DNA of 53,127 bases, taken from contig JAPSKP010000013.1 of NCBI GenBank assembly GCA_031181585.1, forward strand, positions 1 through 53,127. Reading direction: 5' to 3'. The notes below the pieces were generated by a model. That model was not told the DNA's origin and did not search any database. It saw only the letters and a program-made list of their open reading frames with translations. The stretch is from Lysinibacillus sp. Its GTDB lineage: Bacteria; Bacillota; Bacilli; Bacillales_A; Planococcaceae. The position numbers were made by a program, and so were the translations under genes. Shown piece by piece: positions 1,957 through 28,591 of this stretch (positions are counted from its first letter, which is position 1; every line of letters begins with the position of its first letter).

Positions 1957-2667
1957 TTATTTGACCGGACAGAAACCGCATGCCATAAGGCCGGGAACAT
2001 CTTTTGAAAAACAGCAGCTTTTCCGTACAGGGACATTGATGAGCTGTGAAGGGTTCAACCCACCTGTATATGACTTGAACAAGGACTTCTGTGAGAAAGT
2101 ACTCCACACTTTTTCACTTTCTAAGATTTCCAGGTCTTCGAAAGCTCGATCTGCAAGTGCGGGATTTTCAAGCAATGTATGATAATGCCACAACATATAG
2201 CCAAAAATATTTTCCCACAGTGTTAAGGGAGAAATCGTTGTTGTTTTTCTTAATTGCTGAATGATTTCATAGCATTGCTTATAAAGAATATTTGTAATAA
2301 CACGCTCTCGTTCGTCATCTTCTACATAGCGAAAATCGGTTGCCGTAATGAAAGTGCCTAGTGTGCGCATGCCATATTCCTCTACTACTGCAAAACGAAT
2401 ATCCTTAAAATTACCATCCCATACTTCGTCATAAGCGGCCAGCATATAAAATTGCATGGCTACAAACATTCCATAACGACGTCCAAAATGAGAGACGGCA
2501 GCTGCTTCTGTCGCAGCGCCTGTAACCCCCATTAATAGATTACGGAAATCTGTCAGATAAAAATCCTTTTGTATATTTGCCAGCGTGAAGAGGGGTCTTG
2601 ACGGCTCTTCTGTATAAATACTGTATGAATTTAATTGGCGTATTTGATCATAGGAAAGTGCAGGCAT
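1957..2667 (-). CDS. FhuF-like 2Fe-2S protein (possible ferric-siderophore reductase)
   Basis: A 236-residue protein. Its C-terminus carries Cys-Cys, ten residues, Cys, two residues, Cys (C218, C219, C230, C233). This is the unusual 2Fe-2S ligand spacing of E. coli FhuF, which reduces ferric siderophores in the cytoplasm to release iron. The rest of the protein is soluble and helical, with no membrane span. The ATG at 2667 is preferred over the GTG at 2676 because the SD AAAGGTG overlaps the GTG. No Fur box is visible in its own promoter region, although one occurs about 600 bp away. The cluster motif is clear; the substrate is inferred from the family. Confidence 0.7.
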   Translation of the reverse strand: MPALSYDQIRQLNSYSIYTEEPSRPLFTLANIQKDFYLTDFRNLLMGVTGAATEAAAVSHFGRRYGMFVAMQFYMLAAYDEVWDGNFKDIRFAVVEEYGMRTLGTFITATDFRYVEDDERERVITNILYKQCYEIIQQLRKTTTISPLTLWENIFGYMLWHYHTLLENPALADRAFEDLEILESEKVWSTFSQKSLFKSYTGGLNPSQLINVPVRKSCCFSKDVPGLMACGFCPVK

Positions 2668-2776
2668 AATGATCACCTTTCAAAAATAGTTATATGTATA
2701 GTGTAACATTTCCTGCTATACAAAACGTAGTAAATGAATTAAAATGTATAAAACATATAAGGAAGGTTGGTTTTGA

Positions 2777-3220
2777 ATGCCACAATTAACTGTCTCCATT
2801 CCAAGACCTTTAGTCAGGACAAATCAGTGGGTAATTTTTTTATCTGTTGTCCTGACGTGGGTAACAGGACTATATGGAATTTTACTAATCCCGTTTATCG
2901 CTAACCTGCTTGGTTTCTTAATTGGCTTCAATCCTATTATGCGGGCAGCAAAGTTTTTCTTGAAAAAGGACAAGAAAGACTATGTTCCGGAGGATGCACA
3001 GCAGCAACGCTTTAATTCCATTATTGCTACAACTTTTTTAGGCGGAGGCTTTATAGGATTTGCTGCTGGTTTTTCTGTAGTCGGTTATGTATTCACCGTT
3101 ATGGTGGCTGTTGCTTCATTTGTAGCTATTTTAGGCTTTTGTGTGGGATGCTTCATCCATTTTCAATGGAATCAACATATATACAGAAGAAAACAAAAAC
3201 GCTTACTAAAAGAAAATTAA
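2777..3220 (+). CDS. DUF4395-like integral membrane protein
   Basis: A 147-residue protein with about four hydrophobic segments (about 15-50 as two spans, then about 83-103 and 106-128) and a very basic tail (RRKQKRLLKEN). The layout and the motif around GFNPIMRAAK fit the DUF4395 family, whose function is unknown and which is often found beside thioredoxin- or rhodanese-like genes. No such partner is present here; it sits divergently from the FhuF-like gene. The SD (AAGGAAGG) is 9-15 nt upstream of the ATG. Confidence 0.65.
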   Translation: MPQLTVSIPRPLVRTNQWVIFLSVVLTWVTGLYGILLIPFIANLLGFLIGFNPIMRAAKFFLKKDKKDYVPEDAQQQRFNSIIATTFLGGGFIGFAAGFSVVGYVFTVMVAVASFVAILGFCVGCFIHFQWNQHIYRRKQKRLLKEN

Positions 3221-3240
3221 AAAAATTATCAGAAAATGTA

Positions 3241-3280
3241 TTGACGAAACAATTGATAACGATTATCATTATCATATAAA
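3241..3280 (+). promoter_or_regulatory. Fur-repressed promoter (Fur box 3254-3268)
   Basis: TGATAAC-G-ATTATCA at 3254-3268 matches the Bacillus 7-1-7 Fur consensus at 14 of 15 positions. It continues into a second overlapping half (ATTATCATTATCA). Two sigma-A promoters fit under it: TTGATA (3253-3258), 16 nt, TATAAA (3275-3280); and TTGACG (3241-3246), 17 nt, TATCAT (3264-3269). Bound Fur would block both. The start of transcription would be near 3287. No credible protein gene follows on this strand. Confidence 0.8.
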
Positions 3281-3286
3281 GAGTAT

Positions 3287-3505
3287 CACTTGCAAAACAG
3301 TGCGAGTGTACTTGAACTTTAGCTGCTTTTCTCCAGGAGTGTGCTAGTTCATGAAAATGTTCTAAACCCCCCTCATTTTAGAACATTCACACCTTATGGC
3401 AGTTGCCATGATGATTTGTTTTCACCCTTTATTTTTAAGTTTCTCTTATAGAAGAGAAAACCATTTACGCCAAAATCTTTCGATAAGATTTTGGCGCTTT
3501 TTGTT
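3287..3505 (+). ncRNA. candidate Fur-controlled small RNA with a C-rich loop
   Basis: From the predicted start to a strong terminator there are about 215 nt with no convincing ORF and several hairpins. These are CACTTGC/GCGAGTG (3287-3308); an 11-bp perfect stem 3356-3366/3377-3387 whose 10-nt loop is CCCCCCTCAT; ATGGCA/TGCCAT (3396-3409); TTTCTCTT/AAGAGAAA (about 3440-3459); and the terminator. A single-stranded C-rich loop that can pair with G-rich Shine-Dalgarno sequences, under Fur control, is the design of the iron-sparing sRNA FsrA of Bacillus subtilis. Homology to FsrA itself is not claimed. A tiny ATG-AAA-ATG-TTC-stop at 3351 and a 64-codon ORF from 3396 that runs through the terminator are considered unlikely to be the product. 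Confidence 0.45.
3468..3505 (+). terminator. rho-independent terminator
   Basis: A perfect 12-bp stem (CGCCAAAATCTT with AAGATTTTGGCG) with a 5-nt loop is followed by CTTTTTTG. It faces the plus strand, where the only thing to terminate is the Fur-controlled transcript. The reverse strand has a poorer T run. Confidence 0.88.
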
Positions 3506-3507
3506 CT

Positions 3508-4470
3508 TTATGAAGATTCGATGTCTTCGAGATGTATTCTTTTTGCTACAAGCATCGTATGATAGCTATGCATCACCATCCCTACAATGATTACTCCTAC
3601 ACCAGCTAGTGCAATGGATGATGGCAGTACGATCCCAAGCAGAAGCATTTCACCAGCCATGACAAATAGTACTTCTGTCGACTGGGTTGCTTCAACAGCA
3701 GCGAGCTTTCCTTGATCGGTACGAGCACGATCTGTGGCAATAAAAAATAATGTTGTAGCAATGACCCCTGAACTTACAGCCACTAGCAGGCACTGGAATA
3801 CTTGCGAGCCTGTCGGTAACCCGACTGTTAGAAGGGCCCAGATTGCCATGATAATCCAGGCAGGCATAGAAGCAATTGTCATACCTAGCACACGCTGGAA
3901 TGTGTCAAGACGTCCATTACATACTTCCATCATTTTTCTGTTACCAAGAGGGTAGGCAAATGCTGCTACTATGACCGGCAATACCCCTAAAAGAATAGTT
4001 TGTAGAGAGGCTGTATTTGCCTGTGGAATTTGTATAAGCAGTATACCAATTAATATAACAGCAGAAATAGCTAAAGAAATAAGTGGGATTTTATGCCGCA
4101 CTCCTGTACTTGTCAGGAATAGGGGAGCAAGCAGAACACCTGCTATGATCGTAAATTGCCATGTCCCTGAAACGAGCCAGCCTGGACCAAATGCAGCAGC
4201 AAATGTAAGAGGGGCATAGAACAGGACAAAGCCTACAAAGCTCCAGCTGAGCCAAGGAACTGGTGCCTGCCTTACTTCCTCAGTCAAAGGCTTGAATCCT
4301 CCGCGCATCCAAACAATAGCAACTAAAAACGGCAGCATAAAAAAGTAGCGCAGTGAGGCACTCCAAAGCCAGCTTCCTCCCTCAAGTTCCATAGAATGAT
4401 TAAAGATAAAGGTAAAGCCAAAAAAGAATGCGGCAAGTATACCGATTGCGATTTCTTTCACTTGTTGCAC
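3508..4470 (-). CDS. EmrE-type multidrug resistance efflux transporter (DMT superfamily)
   Basis: A 320-residue protein made almost wholly of about ten hydrophobic helices. It fits the multidrug resistance efflux transporter family within the drug/metabolite transporter superfamily (conserved AAFFFGFTFIFNHSMELEGG start and a GWLVSGTWQFT segment). It should export small molecules across the cytoplasmic membrane; the substrate is unknown. It is monocistronic, downstream of pepT in the same direction but separated from it by a terminator. Confidence 0.78.
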   Translation of the reverse strand: MQQVKEIAIGILAAFFFGFTFIFNHSMELEGGSWLWSASLRYFFMLPFLVAIVWMRGGFKPLTEEVRQAPVPWLSWSFVGFVLFYAPLTFAAAFGPGWLVSGTWQFTIIAGVLLAPLFLTSTGVRHKIPLISLAISAVILIGILLIQIPQANTASLQTILLGVLPVIVAAFAYPLGNRKMMEVCNGRLDTFQRVLGMTIASMPAWIIMAIWALLTVGLPTGSQVFQCLLVAVSSGVIATTLFFIATDRARTDQGKLAAVEATQSTEVLFVMAGEMLLLGIVLPSSIALAGVGVIIVGMVMHSYHTMLVAKRIHLEDIESS

Positions 4471-10267: not shown

Positions 10268-10378
10268 CTCTTATCAAGAGCGGCGGAGGGACTAGGCCCT
10301 GTGATGCCCGGCAACCAGTAATGACTTACAAAGGTGCTAATTCCTACAGATTCGAATCGGGATCTGAAAGATAAGGGG
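10268..10378 (+). promoter_or_regulatory. SAM-I (S-box) riboswitch aptamer
   Basis: The conserved S-box blocks are all present in order: CTTATCAAGAG, then GGCGGAGGGACTAGGCCC, TGATGCCCGGCAACC, AAGGTGCTAATTCC and CTGAAAGATAAG. The P1 stem is CTTATC (10270-10275) with GATAAG (10370-10375). S-adenosylmethionine binding favours the terminator that follows, so the downstream sulfhydrylase gene is expressed when SAM, hence methionine, is low. Confidence 0.97.
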
Positions 10379-25726: not shown

Positions 25727-26500
25727 CTAAATAGGTGTGACTGTTAATGAATTAGAACAAAATCGGAGCGCTCGGCTGATAACGGTAGGGACGACAGAAG
25801 CGTGGTTTTCTTCAGGAGCTACATAGCATTCTACCTGAAGATCAGCAGCTCTCAGCATGGTATTCATTTTCTTTGCATCCTCTACCATAAATCCTTCATG
25901 CTCACCGACTGCCATGAAAATACGTATGTTCTTTTCGCTTGCCCCATTAGTAATGAACTGGGCAGCCTTCTCTATTAACTCTTCTCCGTTCCACCAGATA
26001 GAGGGACTGATGGCGACGATATGCTTAAACTTCTTAGATTGTGTAAATGAACACCATAATGCAAAGTAGCCGCCCAAAGAATGCCCAAGCAGTGTCCGGC
26101 ATTCGGTATTGACCGGATACTTGTTCTCTATAGCAGGAATGAGTTCTTGCTCGATGAAGCTGTAAAATTTCTCCGCCCCGCCATAGATGGCAGGGATTTT
26201 CCCTTTCGCATGCGCAGGCATCTGCAATTCTTCTGCAGAGGCCGTATAGTCTATAAAACGGCGCTCCCGCATTTCTTCTGACTGATGGCAAATACCTATA
26301 ACAATGGCAGGGCTTGTACCTGTTTTCATGCTATTTAATTGCTGCAGCCGAACAGCATCTTTTACAAAACCAAAATAGGACAGACCATCCAGCACATAAT
26401 GGATAGGAAAACCATCACTTGGGACCTTTCCATCCGGTATATAAACTTTGATGTCGTAAGCAGTATTGGTAAAACGGGAATTTATCAAAAAATCATTCAT
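25727..26500 (-). CDS. alpha/beta-hydrolase esterase, BesA/IroE-like (ferric-siderophore esterase)
   Basis: A 257-residue esterase of the PF00756 type. It has the nucleophile S141 in GHSLGG, a likely acid in VGEHEGFM, and a late catalytic His in PEENHASVVP. Family members in siderophore loci cleave trilactone siderophores such as bacillibactin (BesA, formerly YbbA, in B. subtilis) after import, freeing the iron in the cytoplasm. There is no signal peptide, consistent with that. It diverges from the AraC regulator and shares its Fur box. The absence of siderophore synthesis genes nearby fits use of imported siderophore. Confidence 0.82.
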   Translation of the reverse strand: MNDFLINSRFTNTAYDIKVYIPDGKVPSDGFPIHYVLDGLSYFGFVKDAVRLQQLNSMKTGTSPAIVIGICHQSEEMRERRFIDYTASAEELQMPAHAKGKIPAIYGGAEKFYSFIEQELIPAIENKYPVNTECRTLLGHSLGGYFALWCSFTQSKKFKHIVAISPSIWWNGEELIEKAAQFITNGASEKNIRIFMAVGEHEGFMVEDAKKMNTMLRAADLQVECYVAPEENHASVVPTVISRALRFCSNSLTVTPI

Positions 26501-26523
26501 AAATCAACTACCCTCATTTCGTA

Positions 26524-26561
26524 TTGATTGTTATAATATTCTAAATGATAATCATTTTCAA
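26524..26561. promoter_or_regulatory. divergent promoters under a single Fur box
   Basis: The Fur box TGATAAT-C-ATTTTCA (26546-26560; 14 of 15 consensus positions) lies between the AraC and esterase genes. Rightward: TTGATT (26524-26529), 17 nt, GATAAT (26547-26552). Leftward: TTGAAA (26561-26556), 17 nt, TATTAT (26538-26533). The box covers the -10 of the first and the -35 of the second, so one Fur dimer pair could silence both directions when iron is plentiful. Confidence 0.82.
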
Positions 26562-26590
26562 TTATGAAGTCAATGGAGGAGGATATAGAA

Positions 26591-27430
26591 ATGGAGCTGA
26601 CAATCAATCAAGTAATTGAGTATTATGCAGGCTCCTCTATTCGATTCGTAAATGCCTTTACGAGCAGGCTGGAGGCAGGAGGAAAGGATACGGGAAGGAA
26701 AACGGCAAGAGATGTGTGCGGCCTCGTTATCCCGCTTGTAGGAAGAGCTCATTTTTCATTCAATGATACGGTATATAAAATGAATGAACAGATGATTGTT
26801 CATGCGGGGTCAGCAATGAATATAGAAATACAATCTTTTGATGAGCCTTGGGAGTATATCGTGATCCATTATCGGCTTATTGATGCTCCTGCGCCATATA
26901 TGGAAATGCTTCATCGCCATTTTTCCCTAATAATTGATGACAGTTCTAATATTCAGCAGCAGGCCCTGCAGCTTCTTCAACAGCAGGCAAAGCCCGATTC
27001 CATGTCTAAGTTTCATACTCAACTGATGTTTTTAAATCTACTTGGCCATATTTTATTAGCGGCACGAAATGAGCGCTATGAAAACCAGAGAGATAGCATC
27101 ACAGCTGCATTAGATTACATCCATCAGCATTATAAAGAGGAACTCTTCATCAGTGAATTAGCAAGGAAGTTTGGAATAGAGCGCAGAAGATTTTCTCAAT
27201 TGTTCGAGCGGCTTACAGGATTGACACCTATTCAATACTTGACGGAGTACCGCCTGGGCAGGGCAAAAGAGCTGTTAAGGACGAGTTCCTCTCCTATGGC
27301 AAAAATTGCTGAGCAGGTTGGCTATCCGGACGGCTTCTACTTTAGCCGTGTATTTAAAAAGCATGAAGGCATGCCGCCATCTGCTTATCGTAAAACCTAT
27401 GAAAAAAATCCATATTTCAAAAAAGAGTAG
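26591..27430 (+). CDS. AraC-family regulator of the siderophore locus (Btr-like)
   Basis: A 279-residue protein with an N-terminal cupin-like sensing domain (about 20-130) and a C-terminal AraC double helix-turn-helix (about 175-275; LARKFGIERRRFSQLF and IAEQVGYPDGFYFSRVFKKHEG). Compared with B. subtilis Btr, which carries a fused substrate-binding domain and activates feuABC when bacillibactin is bound, this protein lacks that domain and ends after the HTH. The ATG at 26591 follows GGAGGAGG. It is upstream of the transport operon and is itself Fur-controlled, so it likely activates the lipoprotein/permease genes. Confidence 0.82.
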   Translation: MELTINQVIEYYAGSSIRFVNAFTSRLEAGGKDTGRKTARDVCGLVIPLVGRAHFSFNDTVYKMNEQMIVHAGSAMNIEIQSFDEPWEYIVIHYRLIDAPAPYMEMLHRHFSLIIDDSSNIQQQALQLLQQQAKPDSMSKFHTQLMFLNLLGHILLAARNERYENQRDSITAALDYIHQHYKEELFISELARKFGIERRRFSQLFERLTGLTPIQYLTEYRLGRAKELLRTSSSPMAKIAEQVGYPDGFYFSRVFKKHEGMPPSAYRKTYEKNPYFKKE

Positions 27431-27539
27431 GCAATTTCTTATAGATTGAGTATGAGGGTTAATCTGGTAAGGTTGATCCACTCTTCACGCAAATATCCAT
27501 ATGATTTGTATTTCTGTCCATTCCCTATAGAGGGTACCT

Positions 27540-27575
27540 TTGGTAAAATTCAATTGGTAATGAGAATCAATATCA
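27540..27575 (+). promoter_or_regulatory. Fur box with repeated TTGGTAA words upstream of the transporter operon
   Basis: TGAGAAT-C-AATATCA (27561-27575) matches the Fur consensus at 13 of 15 positions. Just before it TTGGTAA occurs twice (27540-27546, 27554-27560; 14-bp period), and CTGGTAA occurs once more near 27464. These could be AraC-regulator half-sites. No good -35/-10 pair is visible, as expected for an activator-dependent promoter. Confidence 0.7.
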
Positions 27576-27607
27576 ATGAAGAATGAACCATAGGGGGATA
27601 ATACATT

Positions 27608-28591
27608 ATGAAGAAGTATTGGTCTATAGGAGCAGCAGCACTGCTTGCGCTAACATTGGTTGCATGCAGTTCAGGCGATGAACCAAAAGAAACAAAAGCA
27701 GAATCAGACACAAGAGTAGAAACAAGCGCTAATGACAGTGCAACAGCAGAATCGGAAAAAGTAATCAGCTACTTAGGTGCGGATTATACTTTCCCGAACC
27801 CTGCTGAAAATATTGTAGCAGCAAGTTTAGAAGCAATGGAAGATGCTGCAGCACTTGGTTTAAAGCCAGCAGGCGTATTAGAAATAGCAGGGGAAATCCC
27901 TGAATATTTGGCAGCAGAATTAGCCGGAGCAGCATTGGTTGGTGATAAAAAGGCGCCAAATGCAGAAGCAATCTTAACTTTAGAACCAGATGCAATTATT
28001 GGTACTTCTAAATGGGGAGAAGATACGCTGGCGCAAATGAATAAACTTGCGACAACATTGCCGTATTCTCATATTTCTACTAATTGGAAAGATAATTTGC
28101 TAGCATTCGGTCAGCTTGCTGACAAGGAAGAGGAAGCAGAGAAAATTATTGCTGATTATGAGAAAAAGGCTGAAGATGCTAAAACAGTACTAGGTAAAAC
28201 AGCAGCTGACAAAGAAGTGCTTATCATTCGTGTCCGTGGAGGCGTAATGAATCTTTATCCATCCAGTGTTTACTTGAACCCGGTGCTTTATGAAGACCTA
28301 GGCCTTCAAACGCCAGCCGTTTTGAAGGAAGCAGAGGCACAGGCAGAGCTTACTCTTGAGACATTGGCGGAAGTGGATCCGGATGTTATCTTCCTGCAGT
28401 TTGAAACATCTGAGAATGCTGATGCGCCGAACGCTTTGAAAGACTTAGAAGCAAACCCAATTTTCGCAAACCTGACAGCGGCTAAAAATGGGGAAGTGCA
28501 TGTAAACATAATTGCTCCTCTGGCTCAGGGTGGTACAGCCTGGTCGAAGGTGAAGTTTTTGGATGCAGCAGTTGAGAAGCTAGTAAAATAA
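27608..28591 (+). CDS. siderophore-binding lipoprotein of an iron ABC importer (FeuA-like)
   Basis: A 327-residue protein with a lipoprotein signal peptide (lipobox LVAC, mature N-terminus C20), an acidic linker (about 21-48) and a periplasmic-binding-protein class III fold of the FecB/FeuA type. It captures ferric siderophore outside the membrane and hands it to the permeases. It has GDKKAPNAEAILTLEPDAIIG and the long mid helix characteristic of this class. It is the first gene of a four-gene importer operon and has its own Fur box. A terminator-like hairpin after it suggests more lipoprotein than permease is made. Confidence 0.9.
   Translation: MKKYWSIGAAALLALTLVACSSGDEPKETKAESDTRVETSANDSATAESEKVISYLGADYTFPNPAENIVAASLEAMEDAAALGLKPAGVLEIAGEIPEYLAAELAGAALVGDKKAPNAEAILTLEPDAIIGTSKWGEDTLAQMNKLATTLPYSHISTNWKDNLLAFGQLADKEEEAEKIIADYEKKAEDAKTVLGKTAADKEVLIIRVRGGVMNLYPSSVYLNPVLYEDLGLQTPAVLKEAEAQAELTLETLAEVDPDVIFLQFETSENADAPNALKDLEANPIFANLTAAKNGEVHVNIIAPLAQGGTAWSKVKFLDAAVEKLVK

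What the first reader, a model, noticed from the sequence alone, without database searches (positions are those of the whole stretch)
3241..3505. Possible Fur-controlled small RNA with an exposed CCCCCCTCAT loop
Sequence: a near-consensus Fur box (14/15) lies directly on two possible sigma-A promoters. It is followed by about 215 nt without a convincing gene, four hairpins and a strong terminator. The second hairpin has an 11-bp perfect stem presenting a 10-nt C-rich loop, which could pair with G-rich SD sequences such as those of the ALDH (GGGAGGGG) and nitroreductase (GAGGGGGA) genes here. Known: FsrA in B. subtilis is a Fur-repressed sRNA with C-rich segments that blocks translation of iron-using proteins. 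Inference: this is an iron-sparing sRNA, either an FsrA functional analogue in this genus or a new one.
Basis: partly seen in the sequence, partly recalled or inferred. Interest (0 to 1): 0.8.

Follow-up and report, generated by a model that had tools for sequence, protein, structure and literature searches.

The report
New Fur-controlled iron-sparing small RNA
A short stretch of DNA that recurs across Lysinibacillus and many related genera has an iron-repressor-type site on its promoter and a three-hairpin RNA shape kept by compensating mutations; it likely makes a small RNA that is predicted to turn down iron-using proteins when iron runs short.

Summary
The window has a promoter overlapped by a Fur-type box (one mismatch), no reading frame shared by all homologues, and a terminator. 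The conserved part is a three-hairpin core at 3278-3387; a covariance model finds it in 86 of 261 genomes of the family (13 of 19 genera). On 43 homologues the stems covary (0.469; shuffled 0.167, 0 of 500). Two loops are near-constant: the reported CCCCCCUCAU, on the third hairpin, and a missed CUUUUCUCCA on the second. In a motif-only scan, 58 of 60 matches in related genera and 0 of 16 elsewhere carry a Fur-type box; 51 of the 60 lie beside a divergent FhuF-like gene. No Rfam family reaches its cut-off here, and FsrA reaches its own in 0 of the 261 genomes. I read it as a new sRNA family that works like FsrA or IsrR without being FsrA. Function is inferred: a pre-specified target test gave no iron-protein enrichment for the C-loop (p=0.41), though Rieske qcrA ranked third of 1,009 ORFs. 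No expression was measured.

The parts
3241..3269 (+). sigma-A-type promoter TTGACG-17-TATCAT
   Evidence: 10 of 12 matches; part of the DNA conserved in relatives
3254..3274 (+). Fur-type box (TGATAACGATTATCA plus an overlapping second match), overlapping the -10
   Evidence: box with 3 or fewer mismatches 42-79 nt before CTTTTCTCCA in 58 of 60 named homologous matches
3277..3503 (+). predicted sRNA transcript, about 227 nt; start inferred from the promoter, end from the terminator; not measured
3278..3387 (+). conserved three-hairpin core (covariance model R2 match, 109.8 bits)
3281..3312 (+). hairpin 1: 8 of 8 modelled pairs show changes on both sides
3313..3351 (+). hairpin 2, carrying the conserved CUUUUCUCCA (3326-3335); CUCC exposed
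3356..3387 (+). hairpin 3 with the CCCCCCUCAU loop (3367-3376); 11-bp stem, all 10 modelled pairs show changes on both sides
3394..3459 (+). two further hairpins (3394-3411, 3440-3459); not part of the family-wide core
3468..3502 (+). intrinsic terminator; nearly the same stem is also terminator-like on the - strand, facing the convergent EmrE-type gene
1957..2676 (-). FhuF-like siderophore-iron reductase; conserved divergent neighbour (below curated cut-offs: PF06276 23.2 of 25.2 bits, TIGR03951 45.2 of 63.85)
3508..4470 (-). EmrE-type (PF13536) transporter gene, convergent; so the RNA is not its leader

Best explanation
The interval carries a Fur-type box on a promoter, a three-hairpin core conserved by covariation and a terminator, and likely encodes a Fur-repressed trans-acting small RNA of about 227 nt that would be made when iron is scarce and is predicted to pair its two exposed loops (CUCC and CCCCCCUCAU) with ribosome-binding sites of iron-using mRNAs and block their translation. 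Shown here: the sites, the fold, the covariation, the near-constant loops, the distribution, the Fur-type boxes in homologues and the FhuF-like neighbour. Inferred: that it is transcribed, that Fur binds, and that pairing blocks translation. The best candidate target is qcrA (Rieske subunit), whose ribosome-binding site GAGGGGGG can form 8 consecutive pairs with the C-loop. By the model comparisons made it is its own RNA family, not FsrA.
For: Covarying structure on 43 homologues: 95.0% of cells paired, covariation 0.469 against 0.167 shuffled (0 of 500) and at most 0.105 when slid by 1-3 columns (alignment fitted to the structure, and 12 of the 55 matches were left out, see full report). Motif-only scan of genome contigs: 76 matches in 73 stretches; 58 of the 60 matches in Lysinibacillus-type genera have a Fur-type box with 3 or fewer mismatches, 0 of the other 16 do. 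Model R2: 86 of 261 genomes, 13 of 19 genera. Divergent FhuF-like neighbour in 51 of 60 matches, and none of the five tested neighbour genes near the other 16. Terminator-like hairpin within 170 nt after the C-loop in 52 of 60. C-run unpaired with probability 1.0, CUCC 0.95-1.0. No ORF shared by all homologues. Other near-consensus Fur-type boxes in the window (26546-26560, 27555-27575) lie before an AraC-type regulator gene and a Peripla_BP_2 lipoprotein gene, beside an esterase gene. A Bacillus-type Fur is encoded in relative G020, which has the RNA. qcrA is third of 1,009 ORFs for C-loop pairing in a 30% sample of G020, and its GAGGGGGG is present in 14 of 14 RNA-bearing genomes where it was found, the window's own included. 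Published analogues FsrA and IsrR (passages).
Against: No expression data of any kind. Pre-specified test: ORFs with iron-site motifs do not pair better with the C-loop (16 of 1,009 ORFs, p=0.41); for the U-loop p=0.013, uncorrected, one of two loops. Shuffled C-loops find as many 8-pair sites in 67 of 200 cases. qcrA's GAGGGGGG also occurs in 9 of 14 read genomes without a model match, so it does not discriminate. lutB has GAGGGGG in only 4 of 10 RNA-bearing genomes read, and not in the window's own genome. The own genome's Fur gene was not looked for. Two large genera (g3, g8; 114 genomes) have no model match.
Confidence: 0.7

Rival explanations
1. It is a Fur-repressed trans-acting sRNA, but its targets are not mainly iron-using enzymes; the loops act on a broad set of strong ribosome-binding sites (general metabolism, regulators, transporters).
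For: No iron-protein enrichment for the C-loop in the pre-specified test; top pairing ORFs in G020 include, by eye, a response regulator, a TetR-type regulator and a RimP-like protein; 0 of 29 GAGGGGG ORFs in the partial G002 list had an Fe-S motif.
Against: Very low power (16 iron-motif ORFs); qcrA near the top; in G034 the 40 GAGGGGG ORFs include QcrA, LutB, BioB, CysH, PreT-like and PreA-like proteins, though that list was judged after the fact; FsrA, IsrR and RyhB act on iron proteins (passages).
Confidence: 0.2
2. It encodes a small iron-stress protein (like FbpA, FbpB or FbpC) rather than a functional RNA.
For: A 36-aa frame (3341-3451) and a longer frame from 3396 exist; a short frame recurs among Lysinibacillus homologues.
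Against: No frame is shared across all 43 homologues; change is constrained as base pairs.
Confidence: 0.03
3. It is a cis-acting leader or attenuator of a neighbouring gene.
For: In three diverged relatives (L024, L028, L029) a Fur-type box with similar segments lies directly upstream of fumC on the same strand.
Against: In the window the next gene is on the opposite strand and a strong terminator intervenes; of the five neighbour genes tested in relatives none lies downstream on the same strand (other genes were not tested).
Confidence: 0.05
4. It is a diverged FsrA orthologue that the Rfam model no longer recognises.
For: Same regulator type, exposed C-rich segments, same class Bacilli; FsrA is not detected above cut-off in these genomes, as if replaced.
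Against: No match in either direction; different predicted fold (FsrA: unpaired region between two helices, 84 nt) against about 227 nt with the C-run in a hairpin loop; no UUUUCUCC in the FsrA locus read. Gene order around FsrA was not compared.
Confidence: 0.12

Closest known systems
FsrA (Bacillus subtilis, Rfam RF02273)
   Same: Fur-type box on the promoter; exposed C-rich segment suited to G-rich ribosome-binding sites; occurs in Bacilli.
   Different: No covariance match either way; C-rich part in a hairpin loop with a second CUCC loop; about 227 nt against 84; three-hairpin core; FsrA above cut-off in 0 of 261 genomes of this family.
IsrR (Staphylococcus)
   Same: Stem-loops followed by a terminator, with C-rich loops; Fur control; conserved across a genus or more (PMC9410917, section 22 read).
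   Different: IsrR has three C-rich regions and H1/H2 stems with little covariation; here one C-run and one CUCC loop, with strongly covarying stems; sequence relation not tested for want of the IsrR sequence.
RoxS/RsaE
   Same: sRNA with C-rich regions that pair with ribosome-binding sites in Bacilli (PMC12871923 passage).
   Different: The Rfam scan of this interval lists no RoxS/RsaE match up to E=10.
RyhB/PrrF
   Same: Fur-repressed iron-sparing role; duplicated copies (here in Caryophanon and several Lysinibacillus).
   Different: Not listed in the Rfam scan up to E=10; those two are Hfq-dependent, which is untested here.

Membership tests
FsrA (RF02273) | Match to the Rfam covariance model | tested here: not met
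   No FsrA match up to E=10 in 3200-3560; 0 of 261 family genomes over cut-off, 3 of 261 with sub-threshold hits of 28.9-31.4 bits against 80 (not examined further); B. subtilis control found
FsrA (RF02273) | Reverse test: model of this RNA matches FsrA | tested here: not met
   R2 gave no match up to E=10 in the FsrA locus L038
FsrA (RF02273) | Fur box over the promoter | tested here: met
   sequence only, binding not measured
FsrA (RF02273) | Length about 84 nt with an unpaired stretch between two helices | tested here: not met
   about 227 nt predicted; C-run inside a hairpin loop; FsrA features from passages
FsrA (RF02273) | Represses sdhC, citB, lutABC and the like | tested here: inconclusive
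   lutB ribosome-binding site complementary in 4 of 10 RNA-bearing genomes read; sdhC and citB not examined; target list
FsrA (RF02273) | Works with FbpA, FbpB and FbpC | not tested
   no search for them was made
IsrR | Stem-loops plus intrinsic terminator with C-rich loops | tested here: met
   but one C-run here, three in IsrR, and two extra hairpins here
IsrR | Sequence homology to IsrR | not tested
   IsrR sequence not held; no Staphylococcus record among the matches
Fur-regulated iron-sparing sRNA (functional class) | Induced by iron limitation and represses iron proteins | not testable with these tools
   needs Northern blot or RNA-seq and proteomics

The most novel reading that the evidence does not exclude
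An RNA family of its own stands in for FsrA across the Lysinibacillus-Kurthia-Caryophanon-Psychrobacillus group: two different anti-Shine-Dalgarno loops on separate covarying hairpins under one Fur-type box, duplicated in several lineages, and in some genera moved in front of fumC, so that one Fur-controlled transcript both spares iron and raises an iron-free fumarase.
Probability: 0.3. Interest if true: 0.75.

Novelty: new member of a known kind. Interest (0 to 1): 0.6.

Why it matters
FsrA is not detected above the Rfam cut-off in the 261 genomes of this family, so how these bacteria would ration iron after transcription is open; this names one RNA, with covariance models and candidate loops, that can be tested directly. 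If right, Fur-controlled iron-sparing sRNAs with no detectable relation act through similar C-rich loops in Bacillus, Staphylococcus and this family.

Tried and rejected
FsrA orthology: no match in either direction. Of the sub-threshold FsrA hits I read seven (L039-L045, among them one of 22.7 bits in the window's own genome): no Fur-type box or FsrA-like C-rich layout that I could see (by eye). The three were not read. Small protein: rejected. Leader of a neighbour: rejected for the main form. The best sub-threshold Rfam hits in the interval (RefA9 21.2 of 49 bits; NrrF 11.5 of 60) were taken as chance.

Targets. GAGGGGG and GGAGAAAAG start-site scans in 8 genomes (the GAGGGGG list was cut, so G002 is partial and G000 was not listed) gave iron proteins in G034 but an Fe-S motif in 0 of 29 ORFs of G002. 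The comparison (3 of 40 against 0 of 211, p=0.004) used motifs partly chosen after seeing the list, so I give it no weight. qcrA was compared in 15 genomes with and 15 without the RNA: one with-RNA genome (G029) had no hit and one without-RNA locus (L393) was not printed by my script; the site is shared by both groups. lutB was found in 13 of 30 genomes.

The pattern tally (142 of 261 genomes) contains chance hits and is not used as a count of the RNA. (order) searched the same 261 genomes. Family membership of the 60 named matches was assigned by me from record titles; L107 is titled Bacillus ndiopicus and was counted in because its model score is 87.9 bits. NCBI taxonomy places Lysinibacillus in Bacillaceae and Tetzosporium in Caryophanaceae; 'family' here means label f1 of the genome set.

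Full report
OBSERVATION. A sigma-A-type promoter TTGACG-17-TATCAT (3241-3269) is overlapped by a Fur-type box, TGATAACGATTATCA (3254-3268, one mismatch to a recalled consensus), with a second overlapping match at 3260-3274. The region folds far better than shuffles (-82.3 kcal/mol, z -6.89, 0 of 200) and ends in a 12-bp terminator (3468-3496 plus T-run). Corrections: the C-rich loop sits on the third hairpin, and I count five hairpins before the terminator. The 15-mer is not rare by itself: 10 matches at up to 3 mismatches in the window against 6.9 expected. The case rests on its position and its conservation.

CONSERVATION. The gene is single copy in its own genome. A DNA search of 61 genomes showed the promoter, Fur-type box and first ~110 nt of the transcript recurring in relatives; the 3' part (3389 on) aligned only in the two genomes of the same genus. 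Across 15 aligned homologues the invariant runs are CTTTTCTCCA and CCCCCTC. These two motifs alone (CTTTTCTCCARRN{14,44}CCCCCCTCA) were then scanned in genome contigs, 84,980 species: 73 stretches, 76 matches. Sixty matches lie in Lysinibacillus, Kurthia, Caryophanon, Viridibacillus, Rummeliibacillus, Psychrobacillus, Paenisporosarcina, Metasolibacillus, Metalysinibacillus, Chryseomicrobium, Tetzosporium and one record titled Bacillus ndiopicus (sorted by me from titles); 58 of the 60 have a Fur-type box (3 or fewer mismatches) starting 42-79 nt upstream. Of the two without, one (L154) had only 52 bases upstream and one (L146) is a third copy in L. sphaericus OT4b.31 without a box. None of the 16 matches elsewhere has such a box (4-8 mismatches). 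The box was not part of the search pattern. A terminator-like hairpin follows within 170 nt in 52 of the 60.

STRUCTURE. A covariance model from three sequences (R1) gave 55 matches in 83 sources. For the pair count I reran it on 40 of these sources (43 matches), leaving out 12 of the 55: three near-identical copies (L100, L118, L122), one duplicate locus (L022), and the eight weakest (E 0.17 or more: L084, an unrelated record; L087, L096, L108, L115, L133, L074, which are likely true but diverged; and a second hit in L106). Ninety-five percent of cells pair, 25 of 33 pairs show changes on both sides, and covariation is 0.469 against 0.167 for shuffles (0 of 500) and at most 0.105 for slid structures. 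The alignment is fitted to the structure and the dropped rows were the weakest, so these figures lean upward. Hairpins 1 and 3 show changes on both sides in every modelled pair; in hairpin 2 the outer stem does and the inner stem is nearly invariant. In the predicted ensemble of 3277-3503, CCCCCC is unpaired with probability 1.0 and CUCC with 0.95-1.0.

DISTRIBUTION. Model R2 (43 sequences) matches 86 of 261 genomes of the family and 13 of 19 genera at E 0.05 or better (strict filters that lose weak matches). Counting rows by genus label (totals): all genomes of g1 (3), g6 (3), g7 (3), g14 (16), g15 (32), g16 (1), g17 (3) and g19 (5); g10 7 of 8, g12 5 of 9, g18 3 of 4, g11 4 of 25, g5 1 of 19; none of g2 (4), g3 (68), g4 (8), g8 (46), g9 (2) and g13 (2). 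Compact relatives without hairpin 1 exist in Chryseomicrobium and Tetzosporium (and g2) and at a second locus in g15; R2 scores them weakly (15.7-23.3 bits), so absence by R2 is not proof of absence. Caryophanon has two tandem copies, and several Lysinibacillus have a second copy at another locus. FsrA (RF02273) is over its cut-off in 0 of 261 genomes, with three sub-threshold hits of 28.9-31.4 bits against 80; it was over it in 1 of 61, a genome of another family.

CONTEXT. An FhuF-like gene lies upstream on the opposite strand in 51 of 60 named matches, and the EmrE-type gene downstream on the opposite strand in 34 of 60. Of the nine without FhuF, four (L126, L142, L149, L154) show other members of the set but had 621 or fewer bases held upstream, and five (L097, L102, L105, L138, L146) show none and are extra copies. 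None of the 16 unrelated matches has any of the five genes. The window's FhuF-like protein is below curated cut-offs (TIGR03951 45.2 of 63.85 bits, E 1.1e-11; PF06276 23.2 of 25.2). The next gene downstream in the window is convergent, so the RNA is not its leader. No ORF is shared by all 43 homologues; a short frame of varying end recurs among the Lysinibacillus copies. Other near-consensus Fur-type boxes in the same window lie before an AraC-type regulator gene and a Peripla_BP_2 lipoprotein gene, next to an esterase gene, which fits a working Fur regulon. Relative G020, which carries the RNA, encodes a Bacillus-type Fur above its curated cut-off (267.7 of 220 bits); the own genome was not searched for Fur.

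MECHANISM AND TARGETS. Both loops look like pieces of anti-Shine-Dalgarno sequence, so the simplest mechanism is occlusion of ribosome-binding sites. This is inference by analogy with FsrA and IsrR (passages of PMC12871923 and PMC11257911; passages and section 22 of PMC9410917). Target tests were mixed. In G034 the 40 ORFs of 110 aa or more whose start follows GAGGGGG include QcrA, LutB, BioB, CysH, and PreT- and PreA-like proteins (families, PreT/PreA names by eye). In G002, 29 such ORFs from a partial list had no Fe-S motif. I then fixed a test in the notebook before fetching about 30% of G020. Among 1,009 ORFs, 16 carry iron-site motifs; they do not pair better with the C-loop (p=0.41) and pair slightly better with the U-loop (p=0.013, uncorrected); the reversed and shuffled C-loops gave p=0.21 and 0.24 and the plain anti-Shine-Dalgarno gave 0.13. 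Shuffled C-loops reached the observed number of 8-pair sites (10 ORFs) in 67 of 200 cases. qcrA is third of 1,009 for the C-loop, behind two identical ORFs that look by eye like antisense to 23S rRNA. Its GAGGGGGG is present in 14 of 14 RNA-bearing genomes where qcrA was found, but also in 9 of 14 read genomes without a model match; four g3 genomes have GAGGAGGG and G014 has GAGGGGTG instead. qcrA is therefore the best candidate, not a proven target.

COMPARISON. It works like FsrA and IsrR (predicted). FsrA: Rfam model not matched, reverse model not matched, predicted length and fold different. IsrR: similar architecture, sequence relation untested. No Rfam family reaches its gathering score at the core in the window or in 14 other loci; below threshold the window's interval shows only chance-level hits up to E=10. 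Literature: in the rows listed by seven searches (titles and abstract starts, lists cut at 9-25 papers) I saw no paper that describes an iron-regulated sRNA in these genera; FsrA together with Lysinibacillus gave 0 papers. One paper states that FsrA homologues exist across Bacilli, Staphylococci and Listeria (PMC12871923, passage); the Rfam model does not bear that out for this family.

VERDICT. A conserved, structured RNA gene with a Fur-type box, a new member of the class of Fur-controlled sRNAs. The iron-sparing role is likely but untested.

Noticed in passing
L028, L029 (g11) and L024 (G015, g14), about 1480-1740: A Fur-type box followed by C-rich and UUUUCUCC segments lies directly upstream of fumC (class II, iron-free fumarase) on the same strand; TIGR00979 is above cut-off for L029 and L024, L028 judged by eye; in L024 the C-loop hairpin itself looks like a terminator.
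   Followed up: partly
L146:1851-1968: Third copy in L. sphaericus OT4b.31 that keeps both loops but has no Fur-type box in the 150 bases upstream.
   Followed up: partly
L095, L114, L130: Two tandem copies of the RNA in Caryophanon, each with its own Fur-type box.
   Followed up: no
L074, L077 about 1490-1550; L104, L119, L140: Compact version without hairpin 1, at a second locus in g15 and as the form found in Chryseomicrobium and Tetzosporium.
   Followed up: partly
window 25727-28591: Esterase gene (-), AraC-type regulator gene (+) and Peripla_BP_2 lipoprotein gene (+), with Fur-type boxes at 26546-26560 and 27555-27575: looks like a siderophore-uptake locus.
   Followed up: partly
window 10268-10377: SAM riboswitch (RF00162, 88.8 bits).
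   Followed up: no
L101 1108-1174 and 2617-2683; L018 1861-1927: Bacillaceae-1 RNAs (RF01690) close to the sRNA locus in two relatives.
   Followed up: no
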